In this document: one piece after another, positions 6,155 through 60,445 of the stretch
Layout: the number at the start of each line of letters is the position of its first letter
Numbering within the stretch: the stretch's first letter is position 1
From: Sulfurivermis fontis
GTDB lineage: Bacteria > Pseudomonadota > Gammaproteobacteria > Thiohalomonadales > Thiohalomonadaceae
DNA: 64,000 bases
Direction of reading: 5' to 3'
Assembly: GCF_004001245.1 (NCBI RefSeq)
Contig: NZ_AP018724.1
Coordinates: 1,418,501-1,482,500, forward strand
Notes under the pieces: generated by a model
What the model saw: only the letters and a program-made list of their open reading frames with translations
Told to the model about the DNA's origin: nothing
The model's database searches: none
Position numbers and translations under genes: made by a program

Positions 6155-6539
6155 GTCACAGCCCTCGCACCGTCTGCTGCGCCTATTGCTGTGGAGTCAT
6201 CTTGCCAGTGCCGGCCTGCTGATTGGGCTGGCGCTGCACTTCCTCTGGCCGGCACTTCTGCTGCCGCCGTTGTGGTTCAGCCACCAGTATTACCGCCGCC
6301 GCACCCTGCAACCGGTGCGGCTGGCGCGTGAAAGCGACGGCGGCTGGTTGTGGCACCGCGGCGACGACACGGTGGTTCCGGTGCGTATTTTGCCGGAAAC
6401 TCTGCTCACACCCTGGCTGGTGGTGCTGCACCTGCGCGAGGAAGGCGGCCGTCGTCATGCGGCCGTCCTGCTCGGCGACAGCCTGCCGCCGGGACAGTTC
6501 CGCGCCCTGCGCGTGGCGCTGCGGCTGGAACGGGTGTGA
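6117..6539 (+). CDS. YgfX-like membrane protein
   Basis: A 140-residue protein overlapping the end of sdhE, the usual position of ygfX (also called cptA) in gammaproteobacteria. Two adjacent hydrophobic helices ('LLLWSHLASAGLLIGLALHF' and 'WPALLLPPLWF') precede a soluble beta-rich tail ending 'LRVALRLERV', the normal YgfX architecture. ATG 6117 is chosen because upstream sequence in this frame is a shadow of sdhE. In E. coli the family has been reported as a toxin acting on cell shape, with SdhE as antidote; that role is disputed and not shown here. Confidence 0.7.
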   Translation: MSSHASVTPLYLESQPSHRLLRLLLWSHLASAGLLIGLALHFLWPALLLPPLWFSHQYYRRRTLQPVRLARESDGGWLWHRGDDTVVPVRILPETLLTPWLVVLHLREEGGRRHAAVLLGDSLPPGQFRALRVALRLERV

Positions 6540-6675
6540 AGAACACCGGGACGAGCGGCGAGGTACAAGATACGCGGAACGAACTCGCTACGCTCATGTA
6601 ACCCTCCATAAAACAATCGTGCGCGCCGCGCACACCGCTCTCATATCTCGCACCTTGACCCTCGTGCCTGTCCGC

Positions 6676-8292
6676 CTAATGCAGCGGCGAGTTGTCCGGA
6701 ACCAGAATGGTATCCTGCGGCTCACCCGCGGCGATGTGGGGATAATCCAGCGTATAGTGCAGGCCGCGGCTCTCCTTGCGTGCCATGGCGGAGCGGATGA
6801 TGAGATCGGCCACCTGCACCAGATTGCGCAGTTCGAGCAGATCGTTGGTGACGCGGAAGTTGCCGTAGTATTCGTGAATCTCGCTGCAAAGCAGGTCGAC
6901 ACGACGCTTGGCCCGTTGCAGGCGCTTGTCGGTGCGCACGATGCCGACGTAGTCCCACATGAAGCGGCGCAGCTCTTCCCAGTTGTGTGACACCACCACC
7001 TCCTCGTCGGAGTCGGTGACGCGGCTTTCGTCCCAGGCGGGCAGGGCGTCCACCGGCGGCAGGTCCGGCAGGCGCGCCGTGATGTCCAGCGCCGCGGCGC
7101 GCCCGAACACCAGGCACTCCAGCAGCGAATTGCTCGCCAGGCGGTTGGCGCCGTGCAGACCGGTGAAGGTCACCTCACCGGCGGCATACAGACCGGTGAT
7201 GTCGGTACGGCCGTTGAGGTCGACCATCACCCCGCCGCAGGTGTAGTGGGCGGCGGGCACCACCGGGATCGGTTCGCGGGTGATGTCGATGCCGAACTCC
7301 AGGCAACGGGCGTAGACGGTGGGGAAGTGGTTTTGAATGAACTCCGCCGGACGGTGGCTGATATCCAGGTACACGCATTCCACGCCCAGCCGCTTGATCT
7401 CGTGGTCGATGGCGCGGGCCACGATGTCACGCGGCGCCAGTTCGCCGCGGGGGTCGAAACGCTCCATGAACCGGCTGCCGTCGGGCAGAAGCAGCCGGCC
7501 GCCTTCACCACGGATCGCTTCGGTGATGAGGAAGGACTTGGCCTTGGGGTGGTAGAGACAGGTGGGATGGAATTGGTTGAACTCCATGTTGGCCACCCGG
7601 CAACCGGCGCGCCAGGCCATGGCGATGCCGTCGCCGGTGGAGATGTCCGGATTGGAGGTGTACAGGTAGACCTTGCTGGCGCCGCCGGTGGCCAGGACTA
7701 CGCTGCGGGCGCGTAGCACCTCAACCTTGCCGCGCTTGCGATCCAGTACATAGGCGCCGAGCACCCGGTTGTCGCCGCGCCCCAGTTTGGTGCTGGTGAT
7801 CAGGTCGATGGCGATGTGGTTGTCGTGCAGGGTGATGTTGCCGCGGGCACGGGCCCGGTCGAGCAGGGTGGTCTCGATGGCGCGGCCGGTGGCATCGGCG
7901 GCGTGGATCACCCGGCGGTGGCTGTGGCCGCCTTCGCGGGTGAGGTGATAGTCGTGGTGCTGTTCGTCACCCGGCTCGCCGGTGAAGGCGACGCCCTGCT
8001 CGATGAGCCACTGGATGGCCTCCCTGCTGTGTTCGACGGTGAAGCGCACGGCATCGGCGTGGCACAGTCCGGCGCCGGCGTTCAGGGTGTCGGCGATGTG
8101 GGACTCGACCGAGTCGTGGGCATCCAGTACCGCTGCCACGCCACCCTGAGCATAAAACGTGGAGCCTTCGGCACTGATGGCCTTGGCCAGTACGGCAACC
8201 CGGAGCGATGCGGGCAGGTTGAGGGCCACGGTCAGGCCGGCAGCGCCGCTGCCGATGACCAGGACGTCATAGTGCTGTTGTTCGCCGTGCAT
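6676..8292 (-). CDS. nadB: L-aspartate oxidase
   Basis: A 538-residue flavoenzyme making iminoaspartate, the first step of NAD synthesis. Visible are the FAD fold '[11 protein letters not shown]', '[10 protein letters not shown]', 'HRRVIHAAD', the active-site block '[20 protein letters not shown]' and '[18 protein letters not shown]'. These distinguish it from the related SdhA in this window. ATG 8292 is preferred over a TTG four codons upstream. It is divergent from rpoE, the same arrangement as in E. coli and Pseudomonas. The 136 bases between its stop and ygfX hold only degenerate ACAAG-type repeats. Confidence 0.96.
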
Positions 8293-8385
8293 GGAATCGC
8301 GCAAAGTGGCCTCGTAAGGAGCGCTGGCCTACTGAGGCCGGCTTGTTTATGATGCGCAACTATACGAAAAACGTCATGTTTTGGC

Positions 8386-8413
8386 GAACTCTTGGCAACA
8401 TTAGGCAGTCTAT
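8386..8413 (+). promoter_or_regulatory. Candidate sigma-E/AlgU-type promoter of rpoE
   Basis: GAACTC (8386-8391) is followed, after 17 bases, by TCTAT (8409-8413), close to the AlgU/RpoE consensus GAACTT-N16/17-TCTGA. It lies 55 bases before the rpoE start, as expected for an autoregulated extracytoplasmic sigma gene. It was found by eye only. Confidence 0.5.
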
Positions 8414-8467
8414 AGCCGGTGTCCAGCGGGTGGTCGCCTCAAGTACAAGATGAAAGGGTAGGCCCCC

Positions 8468-9049
8468 ATGGGCGTGCAGCATGTCGATCAAGAGCTCGTC
8501 GAGCGTGTCCAGCAGGGTGACAAGCGCGCGTTCGATCTCCTGGTCCAGAAATATCAGCACAAGATCGTCAAGCTGATTTCGCGCTATGTCCGGGATCCCG
8601 ATGAATCGCTCGACGTTGCCCAGGAAACCTTCATCAAGGCCTATCGCGCCCTGGCCAATTTCCGTGGCGAGAGCGCCTTCTACACCTGGCTCTACCGCAT
8701 CGCCATCAATACGGCGAAGAATCACCTCGTTGCCCTGGGGCGGCGCCCGCCCGATACCGACATCGACGCTGCCGACGCCGTGCAGTTGGACATGGAGTCG
8801 TCCGGTTCCCTGCGCGAGAGCGATACCCCGGAACACCTGGCACTCAAAGACGAAATCGAGCGCACTATTTTCCGTGCCATCGAAGACCTTCCCGAAGACC
8901 TGCGCACGGCCATTACCCTGCGCGAACTGGAGGGACTCAGCTATGAAGAGATCGCCGAGGCGATGAATTGTCCCATCGGCACGGTGCGATCGCGCATTTT
9001 TCGCGCGCGCGAGGCGATTGATACGAAACTCAAACCCCTGCTTGATTGA
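8468..9049 (+). CDS. rpoE: RNA polymerase sigma factor RpoE/AlgU
   Basis: A 193-residue ECF sigma factor directing the envelope-stress response. Region 2 is clear ('DVAQETFIKAYRALANFRG', 'AFYTWLYRIAINTAKN') and region 4 is an HTH ('SYEEIAEAMNCPIGTVRSRI'). The sequence resembles E. coli RpoE and Pseudomonas AlgU throughout. It heads the cluster rpoE-rseA-rseB-rseC-degP, so its inhibitors and its main periplasmic effector are encoded directly downstream. Confidence 0.96.
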   Translation: MGVQHVDQELVERVQQGDKRAFDLLVQKYQHKIVKLISRYVRDPDESLDVAQETFIKAYRALANFRGESAFYTWLYRIAINTAKNHLVALGRRPPDTDIDAADAVQLDMESSGSLRESDTPEHLALKDEIERTIFRAIEDLPEDLRTAITLRELEGLSYEEIAEAMNCPIGTVRSRIFRAREAIDTKLKPLLD

Positions 9050-9103
9050 CTAAGGGGTATACGGCAACAACCTGGATACGGCGAGAACCGAGGCGGTAGC
9101 ACG

Positions 9104-9676
9104 ATGGAAAACCAAACGAATGAACAGATTTCGGCCCTGGTAGATGATGAACTGCACGGTCCTGCCCTGCGTCAGGCACTGGAGCGGCTGCGACGGGATG
9201 CCGACCTGCAGGGCCGCTGGAGCCGCTATCACCTGATTAGTGATACCCTGCATGCCAACCTCGCCTCGGCCCGGGCGGCCCATCTGCACCAGCGGGTACG
9301 CGCCGCCCTGGAGCAGGAACCTACCCTGTTGGCACCGCGCCGCAAGCCGCGTCTGTCCTCGCTGGCCAAGCAGGTTGCCGGTGTTGCCATCGCCGCCTCG
9401 GTCGCCGCCGTGGCGATCCTGGCCGTACGCCAAAATGCCGTGGAGCCCACCGGCGTCGCACCGACCGCCATGCAACTGGCACAATCCCCCCGGTCGGCAC
9501 ACGAGCTGGTACAACTGGCCAGCACCGGTGCCCCGGCCACCGTGGTGGTGCCGCAGAGCGCCAACCGCGGTCGCCTCAATGCTTATCTGGTAAATCATAA
9601 CGAGTACTCGGCGTCTTCCGGCATGCAGGGGGTGTTACCCTACGTGCGGATTGTCAGCCACGAGACGGCCAAGTGA
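9104..9676 (+). CDS. rseA: Anti-sigma-E factor RseA/MucA
   Basis: A 190-residue single-pass inner-membrane anti-sigma factor. The N-terminal cytoplasmic domain contains 'NEQISALVDDEL' and 'RWSRYHLISDTL', the sigma-binding pattern of the RseA/MucA family. A transmembrane helix lies at about residues 88-108 ('QVAGVAIAASVAAVAILAV'), and the rest is periplasmic. Its stop overlaps the GTG start of rseB. Proteolysis of this protein should release RpoE. Confidence 0.9.
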   Translation: MENQTNEQISALVDDELHGPALRQALERLRRDADLQGRWSRYHLISDTLHANLASARAAHLHQRVRAALEQEPTLLAPRRKPRLSSLAKQVAGVAIAASVAAVAILAVRQNAVEPTGVAPTAMQLAQSPRSAHELVQLASTGAPATVVVPQSANRGRLNAYLVNHNEYSASSGMQGVLPYVRIVSHETAK

Positions 9677-52323: not shown

Positions 52324-53070
52324 ATGCCAAGCCATAGGGAGTGCGCAGTCTTGGAATTTACCGATACCAGCCGGCAAGAACAAACGCTGATTCAGTCCAT
52401 CGTCAACGCCGAGCTCATCTTCCAGCGCCATCAGCCATCCGCCGGCAGCCTCCCGCCGGTAGTGACGCTGTCCCGCGATCACGGCGCCGGCGGTGAAGAG
52501 ATCGCGCAAATGCTCGCCGAGCGACTGCAGGTGGAACTCTTCGACCGGCAGATTCTCGAGCGGGTTTCGCAAGAAGCCCATGTCGATGCCGAGCAGCTGT
52601 CCTCCATGGACGACAAATCCGGCGTCGACCGGATCACCACCTGGATCCACGGCCTGTTCAGCAGCAACACCGCCTATCCGGAATCCTACCGCTACCACCT
52701 GGTCAACGTGATTCTCGGGATTTGTCACAGCGGCGGCATCATCATGGGGCGCGGTGCGCACATCATTCTGAGTTCCCGTCCTGCATTTAGAGTGCGTATC
52801 GTCGGCAGCATCGAAAACTGCGCCGAACGTATCGCGCCACGTGAAGGCATCAGCATGGAGGAGGCCCGGGCCAGGGTCAGGAAGGTGAATGGTGAGCGTG
52901 ACGCCTACCTGTTCAACATGTTCCATCGTCATCTGCACGACGCCAGTCTATTCGATCTGGTGATCAACACCGACAAGTTCCGGGATATGCAGACGGTCGT
53001 GGACCTGATCCTGATGGCGATGGTGCAGTGCGGCCACACGCTGCCGCCGCAGACGGGGGCCGCCCAGTGA
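52324..53070 (+). CDS. Cytidylate kinase-like family protein
   Basis: A 248-residue protein of the Cytidylate_kin2 type. A P-loop-like start 'VVTLSRDHGAGGEEIAQMLA' is followed by 'VELFDRQILERVSQEAHVD', then 'GGIIMGRGAHIILSSRPAFR' and 'EEARARVRKVNGERDAYLF'. Such proteins are often linked to transport or respiratory genes; the substrate is not established. The start is uncertain: ATG 52324 lacks a ribosome site and TTG 52351 has GGGA upstream. It overlaps the next gene by GTGA. Confidence 0.8.
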   Translation: MPSHRECAVLEFTDTSRQEQTLIQSIVNAELIFQRHQPSAGSLPPVVTLSRDHGAGGEEIAQMLAERLQVELFDRQILERVSQEAHVDAEQLSSMDDKSGVDRITTWIHGLFSSNTAYPESYRYHLVNVILGICHSGGIIMGRGAHIILSSRPAFRVRIVGSIENCAERIAPREGISMEEARARVRKVNGERDAYLFNMFHRHLHDASLFDLVINTDKFRDMQTVVDLILMAMVQCGHTLPPQTGAAQ

Positions 53071-53507
53071 TCAACACTGACAAGACCTTCCTGCTGAACA
53101 TTGCCAGTCCGGAGCGGGCGATCTATTCTGGCCCGGCGCACATGGTCTCGGTGCTGTCCGTCAACGGCGAGCTCGGCATCCTGCCGCGCCATTCGCCCTT
53201 GCTGGCCGATCTGCTACCGGGAGAGGTACGCATCAGCACCGCCGACGGCACGGAGGAATATGTCTACATCTCCGGTGGCTACATCGAGGTGCTCCCGCAT
53301 GTAGTCACCATCCTCGCCGATACCGCCTTGCGTGGCGAGGACGTCGACGAAGCCGCAGCCCTGGAAGCCAAGAAGCGCGCCGAACGCACCATCCGTACCA
53401 GCCCGCTGTACAGCGACCGCGATCAGGCCCAGCTGGAGCTGATCAAGGCCCTGGCCCAGCTCAAGGCGCTGGAACACGCGCGGCGTGGCAAGAAGCGGGG
53501 GATGTGA
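53067..53507 (+). CDS. Orphan F1F0-ATP synthase epsilon subunit-like protein
   Basis: A 146-residue protein with the complete AtpC layout: a beta-sandwich domain ('FLLNIASPERAIYSGPAHMV', 'NGELGILPRHSPLLADLLPG', 'YVYISGGYIEVLPHVVTILA') and a helical hairpin ('EEAKKRAERTI'-like, here 'EAKKRAERTIRTSPLYSDRD'). No other ATP synthase gene is near; it is coupled to the cytidylate-kinase-like gene through GTGA. It may be a paralogue that modifies or replaces the normal epsilon, or belong to a scattered alternative ATPase. The GTG start gives the family N-terminus. Confidence 0.82.
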   Translation: MINTDKTFLLNIASPERAIYSGPAHMVSVLSVNGELGILPRHSPLLADLLPGEVRISTADGTEEYVYISGGYIEVLPHVVTILADTALRGEDVDEAAALEAKKRAERTIRTSPLYSDRDQAQLELIKALAQLKALEHARRGKKRGM

Positions 53508-53796: not shown

Positions 53797-54387
53797 ATGA
53801 CCCCCCAGCAGCGAAATACCTTCAATTTCATACAGGATTACCTCCAGAGCCACGGTCATGCCCCGACGCTGGAGGAGATTGGCGCGGCCGTGGGTGTCCG
53901 CTCCAAGGGGGCGGTGCACCGCCTGGTGCAGGCCCTGGTGGACAAGGGGCATCTGCAACGGGAGGCCGGGAGCTGGCGTGGCTTGCGCCTGACCGGGAAC
54001 GCTGCTGCCCCGGTACTACCCCTGGTCGGACGCATCGCCGCCGGCCGGCCCATCGAGGCCATCCCCGGTGAGGACACCCTCAACTTGTCCGACCTCCTGC
54101 TCGGCCCCCGGCGCTATGCCCTGCGCGTACTGGGCGACTCCATGGTGGGGGCCGGTATCCTCAATGGTGACACGGTGGTGGTGGAGCAGGCCGATACCGC
54201 CCGCGACGGCGAGATCGTGGTCGCCCTCATCGACGACCAGGAAGCCACCCTCAAGCGCCTCAAGCACCGCAAGGACGGTGCCATCGAACTCATCCCCGAG
54301 AACCCCACCATGGCGCCAATGATCTACCCCGCCCAGCGGGTGCGTATCCAAGGCGTGGTGATCGGCCAGCTGCGCAGCTATCGCTGA
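53797..54387 (+). CDS. LexA-like / UmuD-like autocleaving repressor
   Basis: A 196-residue protein. The N-terminal winged HTH reads 'PQQRNTFNFIQDYLQSHGHA' and 'TLEEIGAAVGVRSKGAVHRL'. A cleavage Ala-Gly is present in 'PLVGRIAAGRPIEA'. The S24 protease domain has its serine in 'RVLGDSMVGAGILNGDTVVV' and lysine in 'EATLKRLKHR'. It is slightly shorter than housekeeping LexA and lies eight bases upstream of a Y-family polymerase, so it probably combines repressor and UmuD-like roles in an SOS mutagenesis cassette. Confidence 0.85.
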   Translation: MTPQQRNTFNFIQDYLQSHGHAPTLEEIGAAVGVRSKGAVHRLVQALVDKGHLQREAGSWRGLRLTGNAAAPVLPLVGRIAAGRPIEAIPGEDTLNLSDLLLGPRRYALRVLGDSMVGAGILNGDTVVVEQADTARDGEIVVALIDDQEATLKRLKHRKDGAIELIPENPTMAPMIYPAQRVRIQGVVIGQLRSYR

Positions 54388-54395
54388 GGTGCCCC

Positions 54396-55625
54396 ATGCC
54401 GGCCTTGTGGGAACGCGCCATCATCCTGGTGGACATGAATGCATTCTTCGCCTCCATCGAGCAGATGGACCATCCGGAGCTGCAGGGCCGCGCCATCGGC
54501 ATCACCAACGGCGCCACCGGAACCTGCATCATCACCTGCTCCTATGAAGCCCGTGCCTGGGGCATCAAGACCGGCATGCGCGTGCGGGAAGCGCGGCAGA
54601 TGTGCCCCGACTTCATCCAGGTGCCCGCGCGCCCGGAACGTTATGCCGCGGTTTCCACCGCCATCATGGACGCCCTCACCACCATCACGCCGGATGTCGA
54701 AATCTTCTCGGTGGATGAGGCCTTTCTCGATGTCACCCGCTGCCAGACTCTACTCGGCACACCGGAGCAGATTGCGCGACAGGTGAAGCGCACGGTATAC
54801 GAGGCCTCCGGTGTGCTCTGTTCGGTGGGTGTCTCCGGCGACAAGACCACCGCCAAGTGGGCCGCCAAGCTGAACAAGCCTGATGGCCTCACCGTGGTGC
54901 CGCCGTGGGAGGCCGCCGAGCGTCTGCGGACAGTCCCCGTCACCGAACTGTGCGGCATTGCCGGCGGCATCGGTCGCTTCCTGGCCACGCGTGGTGTGCA
55001 CACCTGCGGTGACATGGCGAGGCTACCGGTGAGTGAACTCGGCCGCCGCTTCGGCAATGTCGGTCGGCGCATCTGGCTGATGGCGCAGGGCCTCGACCCC
55101 GCTCCGGTGGAGACCCGCATCGCCCCGCCCAAGAGCATCGGTCACGGCAAGGTGATGCCACCCAACACGACCGCGCAGGAGGTCATCCTCACCTATCTGG
55201 AACACATGAGCTTCAAGGTCGGTACGCGGCTGCGTCGACATGCGATGGTGGCGCAGAGTTTCTGCATTGGCCTGCGGGCGGACTTCGGTTGGCTGGGTGG
55301 CACCTATCACGCGGCCACACCGACAGATGACAGCGCCCCCCTGATGGCGCTGTGTCGGCGCATGCTGAATGAACAGTGGTCAGGGGAGGGGGTGAGCCAA
55401 GTTCAGGTCACCGCCCTCGACCCGCGCCCATCTGGCGGGCAAATGGAACTCTTTGCCGAACAGCAACAGACCGACAAGAAGGGCAAGGCGAACGCCGTGA
55501 TGGATGCCATCAACCGGCGCTATGGCGAATTCGCCCTGGCCCCGGCGCGACTGCTGGGCCGCTCCGACATGCCCAACGTCATCGCCCCGGCCTGGAAGCC
55601 GCACGGCCATCGCCAGACCATCTGA
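54396..55625 (+). CDS. Y-family translesion DNA polymerase (DinB/UmuC-like)
   Basis: A 409-residue polymerase for lesion bypass. The catalytic motifs are 'ILVDMNAFFASIEQMDHPEL' (first aspartate), 'SYEARAWGIKTGMRVREA' and 'FSVDEAFLDVT' (Asp-Glu pair). A helix-hairpin segment ('LCGIAGGIGRFLATRGVHTC') and little-finger domain follow. The end 'GGQMELFAEQQQTDKKGKAN' holds a QMELF clamp-binding-type peptide. The gene lies between the LexA-like and SRAP genes. Confidence 0.92.
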   Translation: MPALWERAIILVDMNAFFASIEQMDHPELQGRAIGITNGATGTCIITCSYEARAWGIKTGMRVREARQMCPDFIQVPARPERYAAVSTAIMDALTTITPDVEIFSVDEAFLDVTRCQTLLGTPEQIARQVKRTVYEASGVLCSVGVSGDKTTAKWAAKLNKPDGLTVVPPWEAAERLRTVPVTELCGIAGGIGRFLATRGVHTCGDMARLPVSELGRRFGNVGRRIWLMAQGLDPAPVETRIAPPKSIGHGKVMPPNTTAQEVILTYLEHMSFKVGTRLRRHAMVAQSFCIGLRADFGWLGGTYHAATPTDDSAPLMALCRRMLNEQWSGEGVSQVQVTALDPRPSGGQMELFAEQQQTDKKGKANAVMDAINRRYGEFALAPARLLGRSDMPNVIAPAWKPHGHRQTI

Positions 55626-55627
55626 CC

Positions 55628-55939
55628 ATGTGCGGCGGCGTCTACTTCAGCCACAACGGGGAGGACCAGCGCGTTTACTTCCCCAACCCCAAGGCCGTGC
55701 TGCCGGTACGGCGCAAGGATGGCAGTGTCATCCTGCTGCCGTGGGGGCGGCGCAAGACCCAGTCCGGTGTATTGCCCATGGGCGGTTGGGCACGGCTCGA
55801 CGCCATCCACGCCGGCCGCTGGGACAAGTGGTTTCCGGTGCCGGTGAAGCTGCCCATCAAAAGCTTCATGGAGAAGGACATCGAGGGCAACTCACACTGG
55901 TATGACCTGACCAATCGCGTGAACATATATTTAACATAA
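55628..55939 (+). CDS. SRAP-domain (HMCES/YedK-like) protein, truncated at dif
   Basis: A 103-residue frame beginning 'MCGGVYFSHNGEDQRVYFPN'. After removal of Met, Cys2 is the residue that crosslinks to abasic DNA in SRAP proteins. 'PVRRKDGSVILLPWGRRKTQ' and 'PVKLPIKSFMEKDIEGNSHW' follow. Typical members linked to polymerase cassettes run much longer (C-terminal His/Glu region). Here the frame ends 'YDLTNRVNIYLT', its last codons and TAA being the XerD arm of dif, so the C-terminal half is lost. Confidence 0.75.
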   Translation: MCGGVYFSHNGEDQRVYFPNPKAVLPVRRKDGSVILLPWGRRKTQSGVLPMGGWARLDAIHAGRWDKWFPVPVKLPIKSFMEKDIEGNSHWYDLTNRVNIYLT

Positions 55940-55956
55940 TATACATTATGCGCATT
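55929..55956. other. Chromosome dimer resolution site dif (left junction of the element array)
   Basis: XerD arm ATTTAACATAA (55929-55939), central TATACA (55940-55945) and XerC arm TTATGCGCATT (55946-55956) match the reverse complement of E. coli dif, as I remember it, at 26 of 28 positions; only the outer CC of the XerC arm differs (TT). Both arms are present, so this copy should support XerCD recombination. Confidence 0.93.
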
Positions 55957-55974
55957 TCGTGCCCGTCACGAAAT
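55954..55974. repeat. Hairpin overlapping the XerC arm in copy 1
   Basis: ATTTCGTG (55954-55961) and CACGAAAT (55967-55974) form a perfect 8-bp stem with loop CCCGT. The left arm shares ATT with the XerC arm of dif. The same hairpin occurs at 57536-57556 but not at the right chromosomal junction (59141 on), so it belongs to the element. Confidence 0.7.
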
Positions 55975-55993
55975 CGGCGGGAGGCCAGCTCTG

Positions 55994-56395
55994 ATGCGGT
56001 CTTCAAGCGAATTGCTGCATCAAGGCTGGACGGGCAATTTGACCGCCCTGCGCGAGTTGCAACTGTTCGCCGGGCTCAGCAACGAGGACGCCGCCCGGCT
56101 GTGTCTGGTGTCGCCGGAAACCTACCGGCGCTGGCGCCGCGACCGCTCACCGAATCCCACTGCAGTGCGCCTGCTGGCCGTGCTGGCCGGGTACGTGCCT
56201 TGGCGCGGCTGGGATGGCTGGGAGGTCCACAGCGGGTTGCTGTTCCCTCCGGGGTACTCTCGGCACGGGGTTGCCCCGGCCGACATTCTGGCCTTGCCGT
56301 TCACCTTGCAGCTGCTGGCCGAGGTGCAGCGACAGGCCAAAATCACCCGCTCGGAACCGGCCGAGGTGCTGCCAGTCAAGGGGCGGTCCCTGTAA
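55994..56395 (+). CDS. HTH phage-type protein (DUF3653-like), copy 1
   Basis: A 133-residue protein. An HTH-like segment ('LSNEDAARLCLVSPETYRRW', 'DRSPNPTAVRLLAVLAGYVP') is followed by 'RGWDGWEVHSGLLFPPGYS' and 'GVAPADILALPFTLQLLAEV'. The WxGWxVxxGxLxxPxG pattern resembles DUF3653 proteins of filamentous phages such as those of Xanthomonas, from memory. A regulator of the element is the likely role. GGAGG lies nine bases before the ATG; the gene starts 38 bases inside the XerC arm. Identical to the copy at 57576. Confidence 0.75.
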   Translation: MRSSSELLHQGWTGNLTALRELQLFAGLSNEDAARLCLVSPETYRRWRRDRSPNPTAVRLLAVLAGYVPWRGWDGWEVHSGLLFPPGYSRHGVAPADILALPFTLQLLAEVQRQAKITRSEPAEVLPVKGRSL

Positions 56396-56406
56396 CACCG
56401 CCCCTT
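56378..56406. terminator. Hairpin across the stop of the HTH gene, copy 1
   Basis: AAGGGGCGG and CCGCCCCTT form a 9-bp stem with an 11-base loop containing the TAA stop codon. It may limit transcription into the second ORF. The same structure lies at 57960-57988 in copy 2. Confidence 0.55.
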
Positions 56407-56464
56407 AGTGCCATGGGTAGCAGTCGCCATACGCTTTGCAGGGTTATTGGGCAGGGGGTGCGTC

Positions 56465-57124
56465 ATGGCTGATGCGGTCCTGAAAGTGGGCTTTCTGGAG
56501 TCCCTCGAAGCCGTCGCCCCAACCCCCGACGCGGGGCGGCAAGCGTTCCTCACCTGGTCGCTGGTGCAGTCCTTCGGCTGGGCTGAGGCGCGGCGTCGGG
56601 TGCCGTGCAGGACTTGGTATCGCCATTTGCGGCTGCTGGCCGCTGCGGGCCTCCCTGTGCCCCCTGGGCGGGCCATCACCGCCGAGGGGCCCTCTCGGGA
56701 CGGCTCGGGGTGGTTCGGGGCGTCTACGCACGCTGAGGCCGCTCAACTGGTCGCTGTCTCTCCGGGCCGCCTGCTGGAACTCACTGGCCGGCGCTTCCGG
56801 GTGGTGATTCCGGAGGATGGGGCGGACGGGGCGGAAGCGACGACGGCGCCGCAGGCGGGGCCGTCGCTTCGCCTCGTCCGCCCTCGCCCTGCTCTGCCTT
56901 GGAAAAACCGCGGGCCGTTGCGTGTACCCAAGCCGGGGCATGTGATGGATCTGTGGCCTGCGGGAACGACCGGCGTCGTGGTGTCGGTGCTGTTCGATGG
57001 GGCTTGGCTGGTCGAGCTGGAGCACGACGACTGGCAGAAGTGCGAAGACTTGGAAGACCGCTATCCCCGTGTCGATGTAGCCGACTTCCTGCGTTGCACG
57101 TGGCCGCTGGAGGTGTCGGCATGA
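56465..57124 (+). CDS. Element ORF2, intact copy (possible gpII-derived protein)
   Basis: A 219-residue protein. Residues about 22-60 ('GRQAFLTWSLVQSFGWAEAR', 'VPCRTWYRHLRLLAAAGLPV') resemble the end of filamentous-phage replication initiators (gene II / RstA type: W...G.D....l...TfYRhrr.L...Gi). The catalytic part of such enzymes is absent. A middle region is proline/glycine-rich, and the last 65 residues ('PGHVMDLWPAGTTGVVVSVL', 'DGAWLVELEHDDWQKCEDLE') form a separate small beta domain, SH3-like in appearance. I cannot name a family. ATG 56465 follows AGGGGG. Confidence 0.65.
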   Translation: MADAVLKVGFLESLEAVAPTPDAGRQAFLTWSLVQSFGWAEARRRVPCRTWYRHLRLLAAAGLPVPPGRAITAEGPSRDGSGWFGASTHAEAAQLVAVSPGRLLELTGRRFRVVIPEDGADGAEATTAPQAGPSLRLVRPRPALPWKNRGPLRVPKPGHVMDLWPAGTTGVVVSVLFDGAWLVELEHDDWQKCEDLEDRYPRVDVADFLRCTWPLEVSA

Positions 57125-57510
57125 GCGGGTTGCCACCCCACAGCGGGAAAGCTGGCTGCATGTCTCATGGCCGCCCCGCGTCTGGATCACCTCGGAGGGT
57201 TTTCCCCGTAGTCCACAGCCCCGAAGCCCCGCGCGGGCCGATGAAATCGTGCCCAGAGCGCGGGGGCCGCGTGCAACGCGGCGGGCTTGTGGGCCCACGG
57301 GGGAAACCCGGTGCTTGCAAGGGCTCGATCTGCACGAGTCTTCACAACGTCTTTTTTTTGCTGGAGGATGGGCAAAATGACCAACCCGATTACCCTACTT
57401 ACCCCCCCTTGTTTCGAGGGGTCGCATTTGCCCCTGCTGCGCACATTGCAGGGCATGTATTTTCATACAGCAAAACAAGCAAAACCCCTGAAAATAACAG
57501 CGTTTCTCGC
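57125..57510. other. Hairpin-rich intergenic region of copy 1, possible replication origin
   Basis: No convincing complete gene. It contains the hairpin GCCGCGT-GCA-ACGCGGC (57266-57282), the palindrome GTGGGCCCAC (57289-57298), a run of eight T (57352-57359) and a GGAGG-ATG start at 57377. GC-rich hairpins near an attachment site resemble the single-strand origins of filamentous phages; this is inference. Confidence 0.45.
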
Positions 57511-58054
57511 CCTTACGAGTCTATACATTATGCGCATTTCGTGCCCGTCACGAAATCGGCGGGAGGCCAGCTCTGATGCGGTCTTCAAGCGAATTGCTGC
57601 ATCAAGGCTGGACGGGCAATTTGACCGCCCTGCGCGAGTTGCAACTGTTCGCCGGGCTCAGCAACGAGGACGCCGCCCGGCTGTGTCTGGTGTCGCCGGA
57701 AACCTACCGGCGCTGGCGCCGCGACCGCTCACCGAATCCCACTGCAGTGCGCCTGCTGGCCGTGCTGGCCGGGTACGTGCCTTGGCGCGGCTGGGATGGC
57801 TGGGAGGTCCACAGCGGGTTGCTGTTCCCTCCGGGGTACTCTCGGCACGGGGTTGCCCCGGCCGACATTCTGGCCTTGCCGTTCACCTTGCAGCTGCTGG
57901 CCGAGGTGCAGCGACAGGCCAAAATCACCCGCTCGGAACCGGCCGAGGTGCTGCCAGTCAAGGGGCGGTCCCTGTAACACCGCCCCTTAGTGCCATGGGT
58001 AGCAGTCGCCATACGCTTTGCAGGGTTATTGGGCAGGGGGTGCGTCATGGCTGA
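57377..58054 (+). CDS. Junction-spanning ORF (dubious)
   Basis: The frame starts 'MTNPITLLTPPCFEGSHLPL' with GGAGG nine bases upstream, runs through the internal dif-like site, and continues for 170 codons in the wrong frame of the HTH gene. At the right chromosomal junction the equivalent frame (58982-59170) stops after about 63 residues. The start region is plausible, the long tail is probably not. In a circular element the gene would cross the attachment site. Confidence 0.25.
   Translation: MTNPITLLTPPCFEGSHLPLLRTLQGMYFHTAKQAKPLKITAFLALTSLYIMRISCPSRNRREASSDAVFKRIAASRLDGQFDRPARVATVRRAQQRGRRPAVSGVAGNLPALAPRPLTESHCSAPAGRAGRVRALARLGWLGGPQRVAVPSGVLSARGCPGRHSGLAVHLAAAGRGAATGQNHPLGTGRGAASQGAVPVTPPLSAMGSSRHTLCRVIGQGVRHG
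57511..57538. other. Internal dif-like attachment site between the two copies
   Basis: Element arm CCTTACGAGTC (57511-57521), central TATACA (57522-57527) and XerC arm TTATGCGCATT (57528-57538). The centre and XerC arm are identical to dif; the XerD arm is not conserved. This is the form expected for the attP of the circular element. Confidence 0.88.
57576..57977 (+). CDS. HTH phage-type protein (DUF3653-like), copy 2
   Basis: Same 133-residue product as at 55994-56395, with identical protein sequence as far as I can see. It has the same GGAGG ribosome site and the same hairpin over the stop codon. Conservation of this gene while ORF2 decays in the same unit suggests this is the gene under selection, perhaps for immunity or regulation. 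Confidence 0.75.
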   Translation: MRSSSELLHQGWTGNLTALRELQLFAGLSNEDAARLCLVSPETYRRWRRDRSPNPTAVRLLAVLAGYVPWRGWDGWEVHSGLLFPPGYSRHGVAPADILALPFTLQLLAEVQRQAKITRSEPAEVLPVKGRSL

Positions 58055-58705
58055 TGCGGTCCTGAAAGTGGGCTTTCTGGAGTCCCTCGAAGCCGTCGCC
58101 CCAACCCCCGACGCGGGGCGGCAAGCGTTCCTCACCTGGTCGCTGGTGCAGTCCTTCGGCTGGGCTGAGGCGCGGCGTCGGGTGCCGTGCAGGACTTGGT
58201 ATCGCCATTTGCGGCTGCTGGCCGCTGCGGGCCTCCCTGTGCCCCTGGGCGGGCCATCACCGCCGAGGGGCCCTCTCGGGACGGCTCGGGGTGGTTCGGG
58301 GCGTCTACGCACGCTGAGGCCGCTCAACTGGTCGCTGTCTCTCCGGGCCGCCTGCTGGAACTCACTGGCCGGCGCTTCCGGGTGGTGATTCCGGAGGATG
58401 GGGCGGACGGGGCGGAAGCGACGACGGCGCCGCAGGCGGGGCCGTCGCTTCGCCTCGTCCGCCCTCGCCCTGCTCTGCCTTGGAAAAACCGCGGGCCGTT
58501 GCGTGTACCCAAGCCGGGGCATGTGATGGATCTGTGGCCTGCGGGAACGACCGGCGTCGTGGTGTCGGTGCTGTTCGATGGGGCTTGGCTGGTCGAGCTG
58601 GAGCACGACGACTGGCAGAAGTGCGAAGACTTGGAAGACCGCTATCCCCGTGTCGATGTAGCCGACTTCCTGCGTTGCACGTGGCCGCTGGAGGTGTCGG
58701 CATGA
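58047..58705 (+). pseudogene. Element ORF2, frameshifted copy
   Basis: It is identical to the copy-1 ORF2 until a C is missing near 58242-58245 (GTGCCCCTGGG versus GTGCCCCCTGGG). The first frame then stops at 58388. The remainder ('GRAITAEGPSRDGSGWFGAS' to 'DVADFLRCTWPLEVSA') continues in the next frame to 58705. Only copy 1 can make full-length product. Confidence 0.8.
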
Positions 58706-59115
58706 TCGGGCTGCCACCCCACAGCGGACGAGCGGCGGCGAGGGGGCGGGAGGCAGCGAAGCGCCCGCCCCCGCGCCGCCTTGTGTCTGGATCACCTCGG
58801 AGGGTTTTCCCCGTAGTCCACAGCCCCGAAGCCCCGCGCGGGCCGATGCAATCGTGCCCAGAGCGCGGGGGCCGCGTGCAACGCGGCGGGCTTGTGGGCC
58901 CACGGGGGAAACCCGGTGCTTGCAAGGGCTCGATCTGCACGAGTCTTCACAACGTCTTTTTTTTGCTGGAGGATGGGCAAAATGACCAACCCGATTACCC
59001 TACTTACCCCCCCTTGTTTCGAGGGGTCGCATTTGCCCCTGCTGCGCACATTGCAGGGCATGTATTTTCATACAGCAAAACAAGCAAAACCCCTGAAAAT
59101 AACAGCGTTTCGCTC
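58706..59115. other. Intergenic region of copy 2
   Basis: Counterpart of 57125-57510. It begins with a divergent patch (58728-58785) rich in GGCGGCGAGGGGGCGGG-type sequence instead of the copy-1 sequence, then becomes nearly identical, with the same hairpins and T8 run (58971-58978). Confidence 0.5.
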
Positions 59116-59143
59116 CCTTACGAGTCTATACATTATGCGCATT
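59116..59143. other. Right dif-like junction of the element array
   Basis: Element arm CCTTACGAGTC (59116-59126), central TATACA (59127-59132), XerC arm TTATGCGCATT (59133-59143), then chromosomal TCATATGAG. Joining the left XerD arm (55929) to this chromosomal side rebuilds the uninterrupted dif. Confidence 0.88.
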
Positions 59144-59374: not shown

Positions 59375-60445
59375 ATGGCTGAAACCAGAACACGGGTCGA
59401 ACCCCAATACCTTCGGAATTACGTACCACTTTCCGAACTGACCCAGGACAATCTGCAGGAACTCTCACGCAGCACCTTCGTGGAGAAGCTTCCGGCCGGC
59501 CGCACGCTGTTCACGAAAGGTGATGCGGACAACCGCTCCTATTACATTCTGGGTGGCGAAATCGAGCTCGATACCGGCGACGGCACGCCGCCACGCGTAG
59601 TGGCCGGAGCAACGCCGGCCTCCCGTTTTCCACTCGACCATCACCGGCCACGCCAGGCCACCGCCAAGGCACGTACCCAGGTGTTTTACTTTCAGGTCGA
59701 TAACAACCATCTTGACCTGCTGCTGACCTGGGGACAGAACGCCGGTTACATGGTCACCGAAATCGACAACGGTGGCACAGATGTGGACGACGGCGACTGG
59801 ATGACGCACATGCTGCGTTCCAGCATCTTCCACCGCATCCCGGCCTCGAACATTCAGGCGGTATTCATGAAGATGGAGGCCCATCCAGTGAGAGCCGGTG
59901 ACGTGGTCATCAGGCAGGGCGATGAGGGTGATTACTACTATTACATCAAGCAGGGCCGTGCCGTGGTGACCCGCCTGACCAAGACCGGACAGACCATCAA
60001 GCTGGCGGAGCTGGAAGCGGGCAGCAGCTTTGGCGAGGAAGCCCTGATCTCGGATACCAAGCGCAATGCCAATGTCACCATGCTAACCGATGGCGTGCTG
60101 ATGCGACTGGCAAAGGCGGATTTCGCCTCGCTGCTCAAGGAGCCGGTACTGGAAAGCCTCAGCTACGAAGAGGCACAGAAACAGGTCGAGTCCGGTGCCG
60201 CGATCTGGCTGGATGTGCGCCTGGAGAGTGAACACAAGAATGCGGCCCTACCCGGCAGCATCAATATACCGTTGTTCATGTTGCGCCTGAAAACAGCCAG
60301 CCTCGATCGCAACAAGAAGTATATCGTCTACTGCGATACCGGCCGACGCAGTTCATCGGCTGTCTTTTTGCTCACCGAGCGCGGTTTCGATGCCTATCTG
60401 CTCAAGGGTGGCCTGATGGCCATCAAGCAGGGCATGCAGCGTTAA
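59375..60445 (+). CDS. Cyclic-nucleotide-binding and rhodanese domain protein
   Basis: A 356-residue protein. Residues about 15-105 are a degenerate cNMP-binding-like barrel ('LPAGRTLFTKGDADNRSYYI'). Residues about 145-250 are a second, better one with the phosphate-binding cassette 'FGEEALISDTKRNANV'. A rhodanese domain occupies about 260-355: 'AIWLDVRLESEHKNAALPGS' and active-site Cys in 'IVYCDTGRRSSSAVFLL'. No HTH, so it is not a Crp-type regulator. It may be a sulfur-transfer protein gated by cyclic nucleotide. An adenylate cyclase gene converges 11 bases downstream. Confidence 0.88.
   Translation: MAETRTRVEPQYLRNYVPLSELTQDNLQELSRSTFVEKLPAGRTLFTKGDADNRSYYILGGEIELDTGDGTPPRVVAGATPASRFPLDHHRPRQATAKARTQVFYFQVDNNHLDLLLTWGQNAGYMVTEIDNGGTDVDDGDWMTHMLRSSIFHRIPASNIQAVFMKMEAHPVRAGDVVIRQGDEGDYYYYIKQGRAVVTRLTKTGQTIKLAELEAGSSFGEEALISDTKRNANVTMLTDGVLMRLAKADFASLLKEPVLESLSYEEAQKQVESGAAIWLDVRLESEHKNAALPGSINIPLFMLRLKTASLDRNKKYIVYCDTGRRSSSAVFLLTERGFDAYLLKGGLMAIKQGMQR

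What the first reader, a model, noticed from the sequence alone, without database searches (positions are those of the whole stretch)
55929..59143. Two tandem 1.6-kb mini-elements integrated at the chromosomal dif site
A near-perfect dif (26/28 to the E. coli site as I remember it) is followed by two almost identical units, each closed by a site that keeps the hexamer TATACA and the XerC arm TTATGCGCATT. There is no integrase or transposase. Known Xer-exploiting elements (CTX, VGJ, TLC and Xanthomonas filamentous phages) are 6-8 kb or depend on a helper. This one encodes only two small proteins. It looks like an autonomous-looking but minimal satellite family.
Basis: partly seen in the sequence, partly recalled or inferred. 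Interest (0 to 1): 0.93.

Follow-up and report, generated by a model that had tools for sequence, protein, structure and literature searches.

The report
Miniature TLC-type elements at dif
Next to the site where this bacterium untangles its finished chromosomes sit two copies of a 1.6-kb stowaway that probably moves with the host's own recombination enzymes; it is a stripped-down relative of a known cholera-bacterium satellite phage and belongs to a wider family that appears not to have been described.

Summary
55929-55956 is the only dif found in this closed 3.25-Mb genome and lies where GC skew changes sign. Two units follow (55940-57521, 57522-59126; 97% identical), each closed by a site that keeps the central hexamer and XerC arm but not the XerD arm. 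Three congeners carry an empty dif beside the same right-hand gene. In an ORF1 search that ignored position, all 18 gammaproteobacterial loci had dif beside ORF1 or upstream of it. ORF1 is remotely homologous to a TLC satellite-phage protein with a DUF3653 domain, and the degenerate XerD arm is the published attP-TLC anatomy. ORF2's first ~60 residues match the C-terminal domain of G2P-type replication proteins of larger relatives; the catalytic domain is gone. A covarying, origin-like double hairpin is shared by the mini-units and by relatives with those proteins. No Zot (inovirus marker) and neither replication-protein family was found in this genome. Best reading: non-autonomous, miniaturised TLC-type Xer-exploiting elements, integrated by host XerC/XerD with ORF1 as presumed XafT-like activator, replicated in trans by an absent helper. 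Mobility and both protein functions are inferred.

The parts
55929..55956 (+). Chromosomal dif: XerD arm 55929-55939, centre TATACA 55940-55945, XerC arm 55946-55956
   Evidence: Only complete site found in the genome; GC skew sign change; intact dif at the same place in three congeners
55940..57521 (+). Unit 1 (1582 bp), dif-proximal copy, both ORFs intact
57522..59126 (+). Unit 2 (1605 bp), dif-distal copy, 97.2% identical, ORF2 frameshifted
57511..57538 (+). Internal att site: degenerate XerD arm CCTTACGAGTC, centre TATACA, XerC arm
59116..59143 (+). Right-hand att site, same sequence, junction with host DNA
55994..56395 (+). ORF1, unit 1: 133 aa, XRE-type helix-turn-helix plus DUF3653-like C-terminal part; presumed XafT-like Xer activator
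   Evidence: Pfam HTH_3 6.4e-05; hhalign of family to TLC-Kn1 protein 97.8% probability, E 7.8e-13; AlphaFold mean pLDDT 80
57576..57977 (+). ORF1, unit 2, identical
56465..57124 (+). ORF2, unit 1: 219 aa; N-terminal ~60 aa homologous to the C-terminal domain of G2P-type Rep; separate conserved C-terminal domain of unknown function
   Evidence: HMM hit to L054 Rep C-terminus i-E 2.9e-13 and to L046 C-terminal domain 2.9e-19; alignment z 22
58047..58705 (+). ORF2, unit 2: broken by a 1-nt deletion near 58241
56380..56423 (+). Double hairpin at the ORF1 stop, unit 1; candidate rolling-circle origin
   Evidence: Conserved and covarying in 10 sequences
57962..58005 (+). Double hairpin, unit 2
57197..57309 (+). 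Long hairpin after ORF2, unit 1; candidate packaging or minus-strand signal
   Evidence: Fold z -6.2; same arm sequence TCCCCGTAGTCCAC in L047 (z -4.6) and L031/L048
58802..58914 (+). Long hairpin, unit 2
   Evidence: Fold z -6.3
59375..60445 (+). Host flank gene (cyclic-nucleotide-binding plus rhodanese domains), conserved next to the empty dif in congeners

Best explanation
The units are miniature, non-autonomous members of the TLC-type class of integrative mobile elements exploiting Xer (IMEX). SHOWN: they sit at dif; each att keeps the centre and XerC arm but lacks the XerD arm; relatives of ORF1 lie at dif wherever found; ORF1 is remotely homologous to a DUF3653 protein of TLC satellite phage; ORF2 contains the C-terminal domain of a G2P-type Rep without its catalytic part; a covarying double hairpin is shared with Rep-bearing relatives. 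INFERRED: host XerC/XerD recombine a circular unit with dif; ORF1 replaces FtsK as activator of XerD, as reported for XafT; each integration rebuilds a full dif on the left, so new copies enter at the dif-proximal side and older copies are pushed to the right and decay; the circle is copied by a Rep supplied in trans acting on the double hairpin, with ORF2 binding that origin or damping Rep much as gpX does in Ff phages; transfer needs a helper filamentous phage that is not in this genome now.
For: att anatomy equals published attP-TLC: XerC arm and centre nearly identical to dif, XerD arm degenerate (PMC4246890). Empty dif in three congeners. 18 of 18 gammaproteobacterial ORF1 relatives found without using position have dif upstream, 65-183 bp away in 17 and 1.6 kb in L061. 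Distal sites at 0.93-5.7 kb in eleven further loci. ORF1 family to TLC-Kn1 protein E 7.8e-13, which carries DUF3653 at 3.8e-24. Genomes with DUF3653 hits in a 369-genome sample have dif or a dif-like site beside them. ORF2 to Rep C-terminus 2.9e-13, z 22. Double-hairpin covariation score 0.51 against 0.16 in shuffles and 0.09-0.16 when slid. Second copies or remnants lie downstream in several loci, mostly truncated or broken while the dif-proximal copy is intact.
Against: No excised circle or transfer can be seen from sequence. The genome has no Zot, Phage_CRI or REP_ORF2-G2P protein, so no resident helper. Homology to the TLC protein is remote, window ORF1 has no significant DUF3653 hit of its own, and I could not confirm that this TLC protein is XafT. 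The candidate origin has no tested nick site.
Confidence: 0.7

Rival explanations
1. Immobile relics: two fossil copies of a larger TLC-type element that lost its Rep by deletion and is now decaying at dif.
For: ORF2 of unit 2 is frameshifted; no helper genes in the genome; several relatives have truncated second copies.
Against: The same two-gene layout with ORF2 and a conserved hairpin occurs in two other lineages (L047, L048) with ORF1 and ORF2 kept at 35-56% protein identity, and a third (L046) keeps ORF1 plus the ORF2 C-terminal domain; ORF1 is intact in both window copies.
Confidence: 0.17
2. Small rolling-circle plasmids with a dif-like site that are captured at dif, with no phage helper in their life cycle.
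For: No structural phage genes in any member read; a replication domain and an origin-like structure are present.
Against: No match of a family ORF1 (L058) in 72,556 plasmid records; mini-units lack a complete Rep; homology is to a satellite phage.
Confidence: 0.08
3. A host-serving regulator cassette at dif, for example one that modulates dimer resolution, fixed rather than mobile.
For: ORF1 is a DNA-binding protein located beside dif in many genomes.
Against: Absent from the dif of all four same-genus genomes tested with ORF1, patchy across the class (13 of 369 genomes), tandem copies, variable cargo in relatives.
Confidence: 0.05

Closest known systems
TLC satellite phage of Vibrio cholerae
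   Same: Integrates at dif by host XerC/XerD; attP keeps XerC arm and centre but has a degenerate XerD arm (PMC4246890); no morphogenesis genes; a homologue of ORF1 lies next to the XerC arm
   Different: TLC has its own replication module (PMC4246890); the window units have only a Rep C-terminal domain and are 1.6 kb; the TLC gene ends at the XerC arm while ORF1 starts there; no helper in this genome
XafT-encoding IMEX (Midonet et al. 2019 PNAS, cited in PMC9765430; paper itself not held)
   Same: Presumed Xer activation factor carried by the element, no recombinase of its own
   Different: Whether ORF1 is functionally XafT is untested; I do not know whether mini-units of this size were in that survey
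VGJ and CTX filamentous phages
   Same: Use of dif and host Xer recombinases, tandem copies
   Different: Different attP types (VGJ centre mismatched on the XerD side, CTX folded single strand; PMC4246890); full phages
RS1-type satellites of CTX (from memory)
   Same: Small satellite in tandem arrays at dif, replicated and packaged by a helper
   Different: RS1 encodes its own replication protein and is larger
Rep-bearing dif elements of Chromatiaceae found here (L049-L058)
   Same: Same ORF1 family, same dif location, same att type; some share the double hairpin and the Rep C-terminal domain
   Different: 2.8-5.7 kb where both ends are seen, with Rep of Phage_CRI or REP_ORF2-G2P type and often a reverse XRE repressor

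Membership tests
Integrative mobile elements exploiting Xer (IMEX) | Inserted at the chromosomal dif, dif restored on one side | tested here: met
Integrative mobile elements exploiting Xer (IMEX) | No recombinase of its own | tested here: met
   only helix-turn-helix hits in ORF1, none in ORF2
Integrative mobile elements exploiting Xer (IMEX) | Observed integration or excision by XerC/XerD | not testable with these tools
   Needs reads or bench work
TLC-type satellite phages | attP with XerC arm and centre matching dif, XerD arm degenerate | tested here: met
   anatomy from PMC4246890
TLC-type satellite phages | XafT-type or DUF3653 protein beside att | tested here: inconclusive
   Family profile matches the TLC DUF3653 protein at E 7.8e-13, but ORF1 alone gives no DUF3653 hit and identity of that TLC protein with XafT was not confirmed
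TLC-type satellite phages | Own replication module | tested here: not met
   ORF2 has only the Rep C-terminal domain
TLC-type satellite phages | No morphogenesis genes | tested here: met
TLC-type satellite phages | Packaged by a helper filamentous phage | not testable with these tools
   No Zot in this genome
Autonomous inovirus or rolling-circle replicon | Complete HUH or G2P replication initiator | tested here: not met
   No Phage_CRI or REP_ORF2-G2P match in the unit or genome

The most novel reading that the evidence does not exclude
The units are the smallest Xer-exploiting mobile elements known: satellites of satellites that keep only an Xer activator, a Rep-derived origin-binding domain and the origin/packaging hairpins, and are moved in trans by larger TLC-type elements. 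In their Chromatiaceae relatives the att site interrupts the activator gene, so integration into dif cuts off its start codon and places a stop before it, giving an integration-gated activator.
Probability: 0.3. Interest if true: 0.8.

Novelty: new variant of a known kind. Interest (0 to 1): 0.62.

Why it matters
If true, it lowers the known size of Xer-exploiting elements to about 0.9-1.6 kb and shows what is minimally kept: att, a presumed XerD activator and replication signals. It offers many XafT-like proteins for study of how XerD can be switched on without FtsK, and gives a covarying candidate origin for G2P-type replication proteins of dif elements. The att-in-gene layout in Chromatiaceae relatives would explain how such an element could lock itself in after integration.

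Tried and rejected
Single-sequence searches of ORF1 and ORF2 in IMG/VR and in phage records found nothing; the ORF1 alignment gave one weak IMG/VR hit without dif (L065). A plasmid and a phage search with L058 ORF1 found nothing. The TWTCCCCGTAGTCCACRG motif has no IMG/VR match. No Rfam family matches. Fold search of ORF1 gave only generic XRE-type helix-turn-helix proteins with no E below 0.001; the ORF2 model is poor (pLDDT 67) and its matches are meaningless. The ORF1 tree is unresolved: no starred set holds the window and long branches meet at TLC, so I draw no transfer history from it. The promoter scan gave two chance-level sites. L057-type Rep C-termini do not match ORF2. Clostridia hit L064 and viral hit L065 have no dif and were left out. 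Considered and rejected: transposon (no other copies, no transposase).
Full report
What is there. The window lies at 1418501-1482500 of a closed 3,246,214-bp genome. At 55929-55956 stands ATTTAACATAA TATACA TTATGCGCATT, a complete dif. Two units follow, 55940-57521 and 57522-59126, each ending where TATACA plus the XerC arm recurs, preceded by CCTTACGAGTC instead of a XerD arm. Nothing else in the genome matches hexamer plus XerC arm with up to two mismatches, and the unit has no other copy. Samples of 16-20 kb show positive GC skew up to the window and negative skew after it, so this is the terminus site.

Insertion. In three congeners (G017, G016, G014) the gene to the right of the units, with cyclic-nucleotide-binding and rhodanese domains, has a single intact dif about 255 bp upstream and no unit; blastn shows the right flank continuing at about 79% identity up to dif. 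ORF1 was absent from all four same-genus genomes searched.

The family. A scan of 84,980 species genomes with an ORF1 alignment, which used no information on position, gave 18 gammaproteobacterial loci and one weak Clostridia hit. All 18 have a dif of 21-27 of 28 matching bases upstream of ORF1: 65-183 bp in 17, 1.6 kb in L061, where Rep comes first. They include Thiocystis, Allochromatium, Thiorhodococcus, Thiobaca, Thiohalocapsa, Lamprocystis and unnamed MAGs. In a separate sample of 369 Gammaproteobacteria 13 genomes matched ORF1 and the closer ones also lie at dif. Several of these sit at contig ends, as expected of tandem copies. Distal att sites give sizes of 930 bp (G168), 1213 (L047), 1330 (L046), 1417 and 1507 (G126), 2099 (L061), 2823 (L049), 2934 (L052), 3728 (L055), 4077 (L057, altered centre), 4242 (L053) and 5722 (L058).

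ORF1. It is a 133-aa protein with an XRE-type helix-turn-helix (Pfam HTH_3 6.4e-05; model pLDDT 80). A G007 relative at dif hits a protein of Vibrio phage TLC-Kn1, and the profile of seven family members aligns to that protein with probability 97.8% and E 7.8e-13 over 75 columns. The TLC protein has DUF3653 at 3.8e-24. In the 369 genomes DUF3653 was found in four, with dif or a dif-like site beside it in each, although G126 has a diverged XerC arm and only one of G061's two loci has a clear dif. The literature reports that a V. cholerae IMEX encodes a XerD-activating factor, XafT (PMC9765430, citing Midonet et al. 2019, not held); the attP-TLC anatomy is from PMC4246890. That ORF1 acts like XafT is inference; that the TLC protein matched here is XafT is not confirmed.

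ORF2. No library recognises it. An HMM of three ORF2 proteins hits the C-terminus of the Phage_CRI replication protein of an uncultured Lamprocystis element (L054, residues 411-462, i-E 2.9e-13) and the single-domain ORF2 of L046 (2.9e-19) among 91 element ORFs. The window sequence scores 123 against 25 +/- 4.4 for shuffled L054 Rep C-terminus and 104 for that of L058, but no more than chance for L057. So ORF2 joins a Rep C-terminal DNA-binding domain to a second conserved domain, without a catalytic domain. It was found in 3 of 369 genomes, each time in an element at dif. A role like gpX of Ff phages is analogy from general knowledge.

Non-coding signals. A double hairpin lies at the end of ORF1: an 8-bp stem with loop containing GTA, spacer, then a 6-bp stem with a 4-nt loop. 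A blind scan finds it just after ORF1 in L046, L047, L048, L050, L057, L058 and L059, against 16 hits in 800,000 strand-bases of host DNA; L060 and L062 hits on the other strand look like background; the window copies miss the threshold because the second stem pairs 4 of 6. On ten sequences (nine distinct) 88% of cells pair and the covariation score is 0.51 against 0.16 +/- 0.04 in shuffles and 0.09-0.16 when slid. Most sequences were chosen by a search for this structure, so the percentage paired is biased; the two-sided changes and the conserved loop and spacer are the stronger evidence. It occurs in mini-units and in Phage_CRI-type relatives, not in the REP_ORF2-G2P elements examined. A rolling-circle origin is the likeliest role; an RNA structure controlling the next gene is possible. 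A second, long hairpin follows ORF2 (z -6.2 and -6.3), with the same arm in L047 (z -4.6) and the left arm in L048 at its contig end; L046 has a different strong hairpin there.

Polarity. Because each insertion leaves the complete dif on the left, new copies should enter there. Downstream of the first distal site, second copies or remnants of 126 bp or more are seen in L047, L049, L052, L053, L057, G168, G126 and the window; most are truncated or broken while the proximal copy is intact. In the window the broken ORF2 is in the distal unit. This fits the model but does not prove it; the block difference after ORF2 suggests separate arrivals or recombination, not simple duplication.

A feature of relatives. 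In five Chromatiaceae elements with an intact distal site (L049, L052, L053, L055, L058) the ORF1 frame is open across att and its likely start, M/V-G/A-Q-T/P-A, lies in the right end of the element, before att. In the integrated form the XerD arm of dif puts TAA in frame directly before that frame; L052, L056 and L060 then have no ATG/GTG/TTG before the helix-turn-helix. Integration would thus disconnect the activator gene from its start. The window units do not share this: their ORF1 start lies 38 bp inside the unit.

Helper. No Zot, Phage_CRI or REP_ORF2-G2P protein was found in this genome at the thresholds used, so if the units move, the helper comes from outside or is of another type.

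Verdict. The finding is real. It works, most likely, like TLC satellite phage at the integration step. As a member of the TLC type it fails one defining feature, an own replication module, so I file it as a miniature, non-autonomous variant.

Noticed in passing
window 53797-55939: A lexA-like, Y-family polymerase and small ORF module fills the XerD side of dif. The small ORF is 103 aa and its end is dif sequence, while the plasmid homologue in Methylophaga is annotated as a 441-bp gene. In congener G017 the homologue of window 53028-53507 lies directly left of dif, so the module is a separate insertion apparently cut at dif.
   Followed up: partly
L036 (G126, reverse strand) 6317-9268: Independent tandem array at a dif with a diverged XerC arm: units of 1417 and 1507 bp, each with a DUF3653 protein (277/300 aa) and a 121-124 aa ORF.
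   Followed up: partly
L049, L052, L053, L055, L058 around att: att lies inside the ORF1 reading frame; integration removes the start codon and puts a stop in front.
   Followed up: partly
L010 8659-9051, L032, L033: ORF1/DUF3653-like genes on the XerD side of dif, reading away from it; in L010 and L033 a holin-like membrane protein gene (my reading of the sequence) lies nearby.
   Followed up: no
G007 C49:11208 and C27:51828: Two dif-like sites in one draft genome; the second lies near the cyclic-nucleotide/rhodanese gene that flanks dif in the window.
   Followed up: no
window 57366-57387, L046 and L047 right ends: A ribosome-site-like GGGCAAWATGACC motif recurs near the right end of three mini-units; reading runs across att out of frame with ORF1.
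   Followed up: no
L059 8910-9626: A dif element carrying ORF1, the double hairpin, an XRE-type gene and what looks like a phospholipase-D-like protein, with no Rep seen: possible cargo-bearing non-autonomous member.
   Followed up: no
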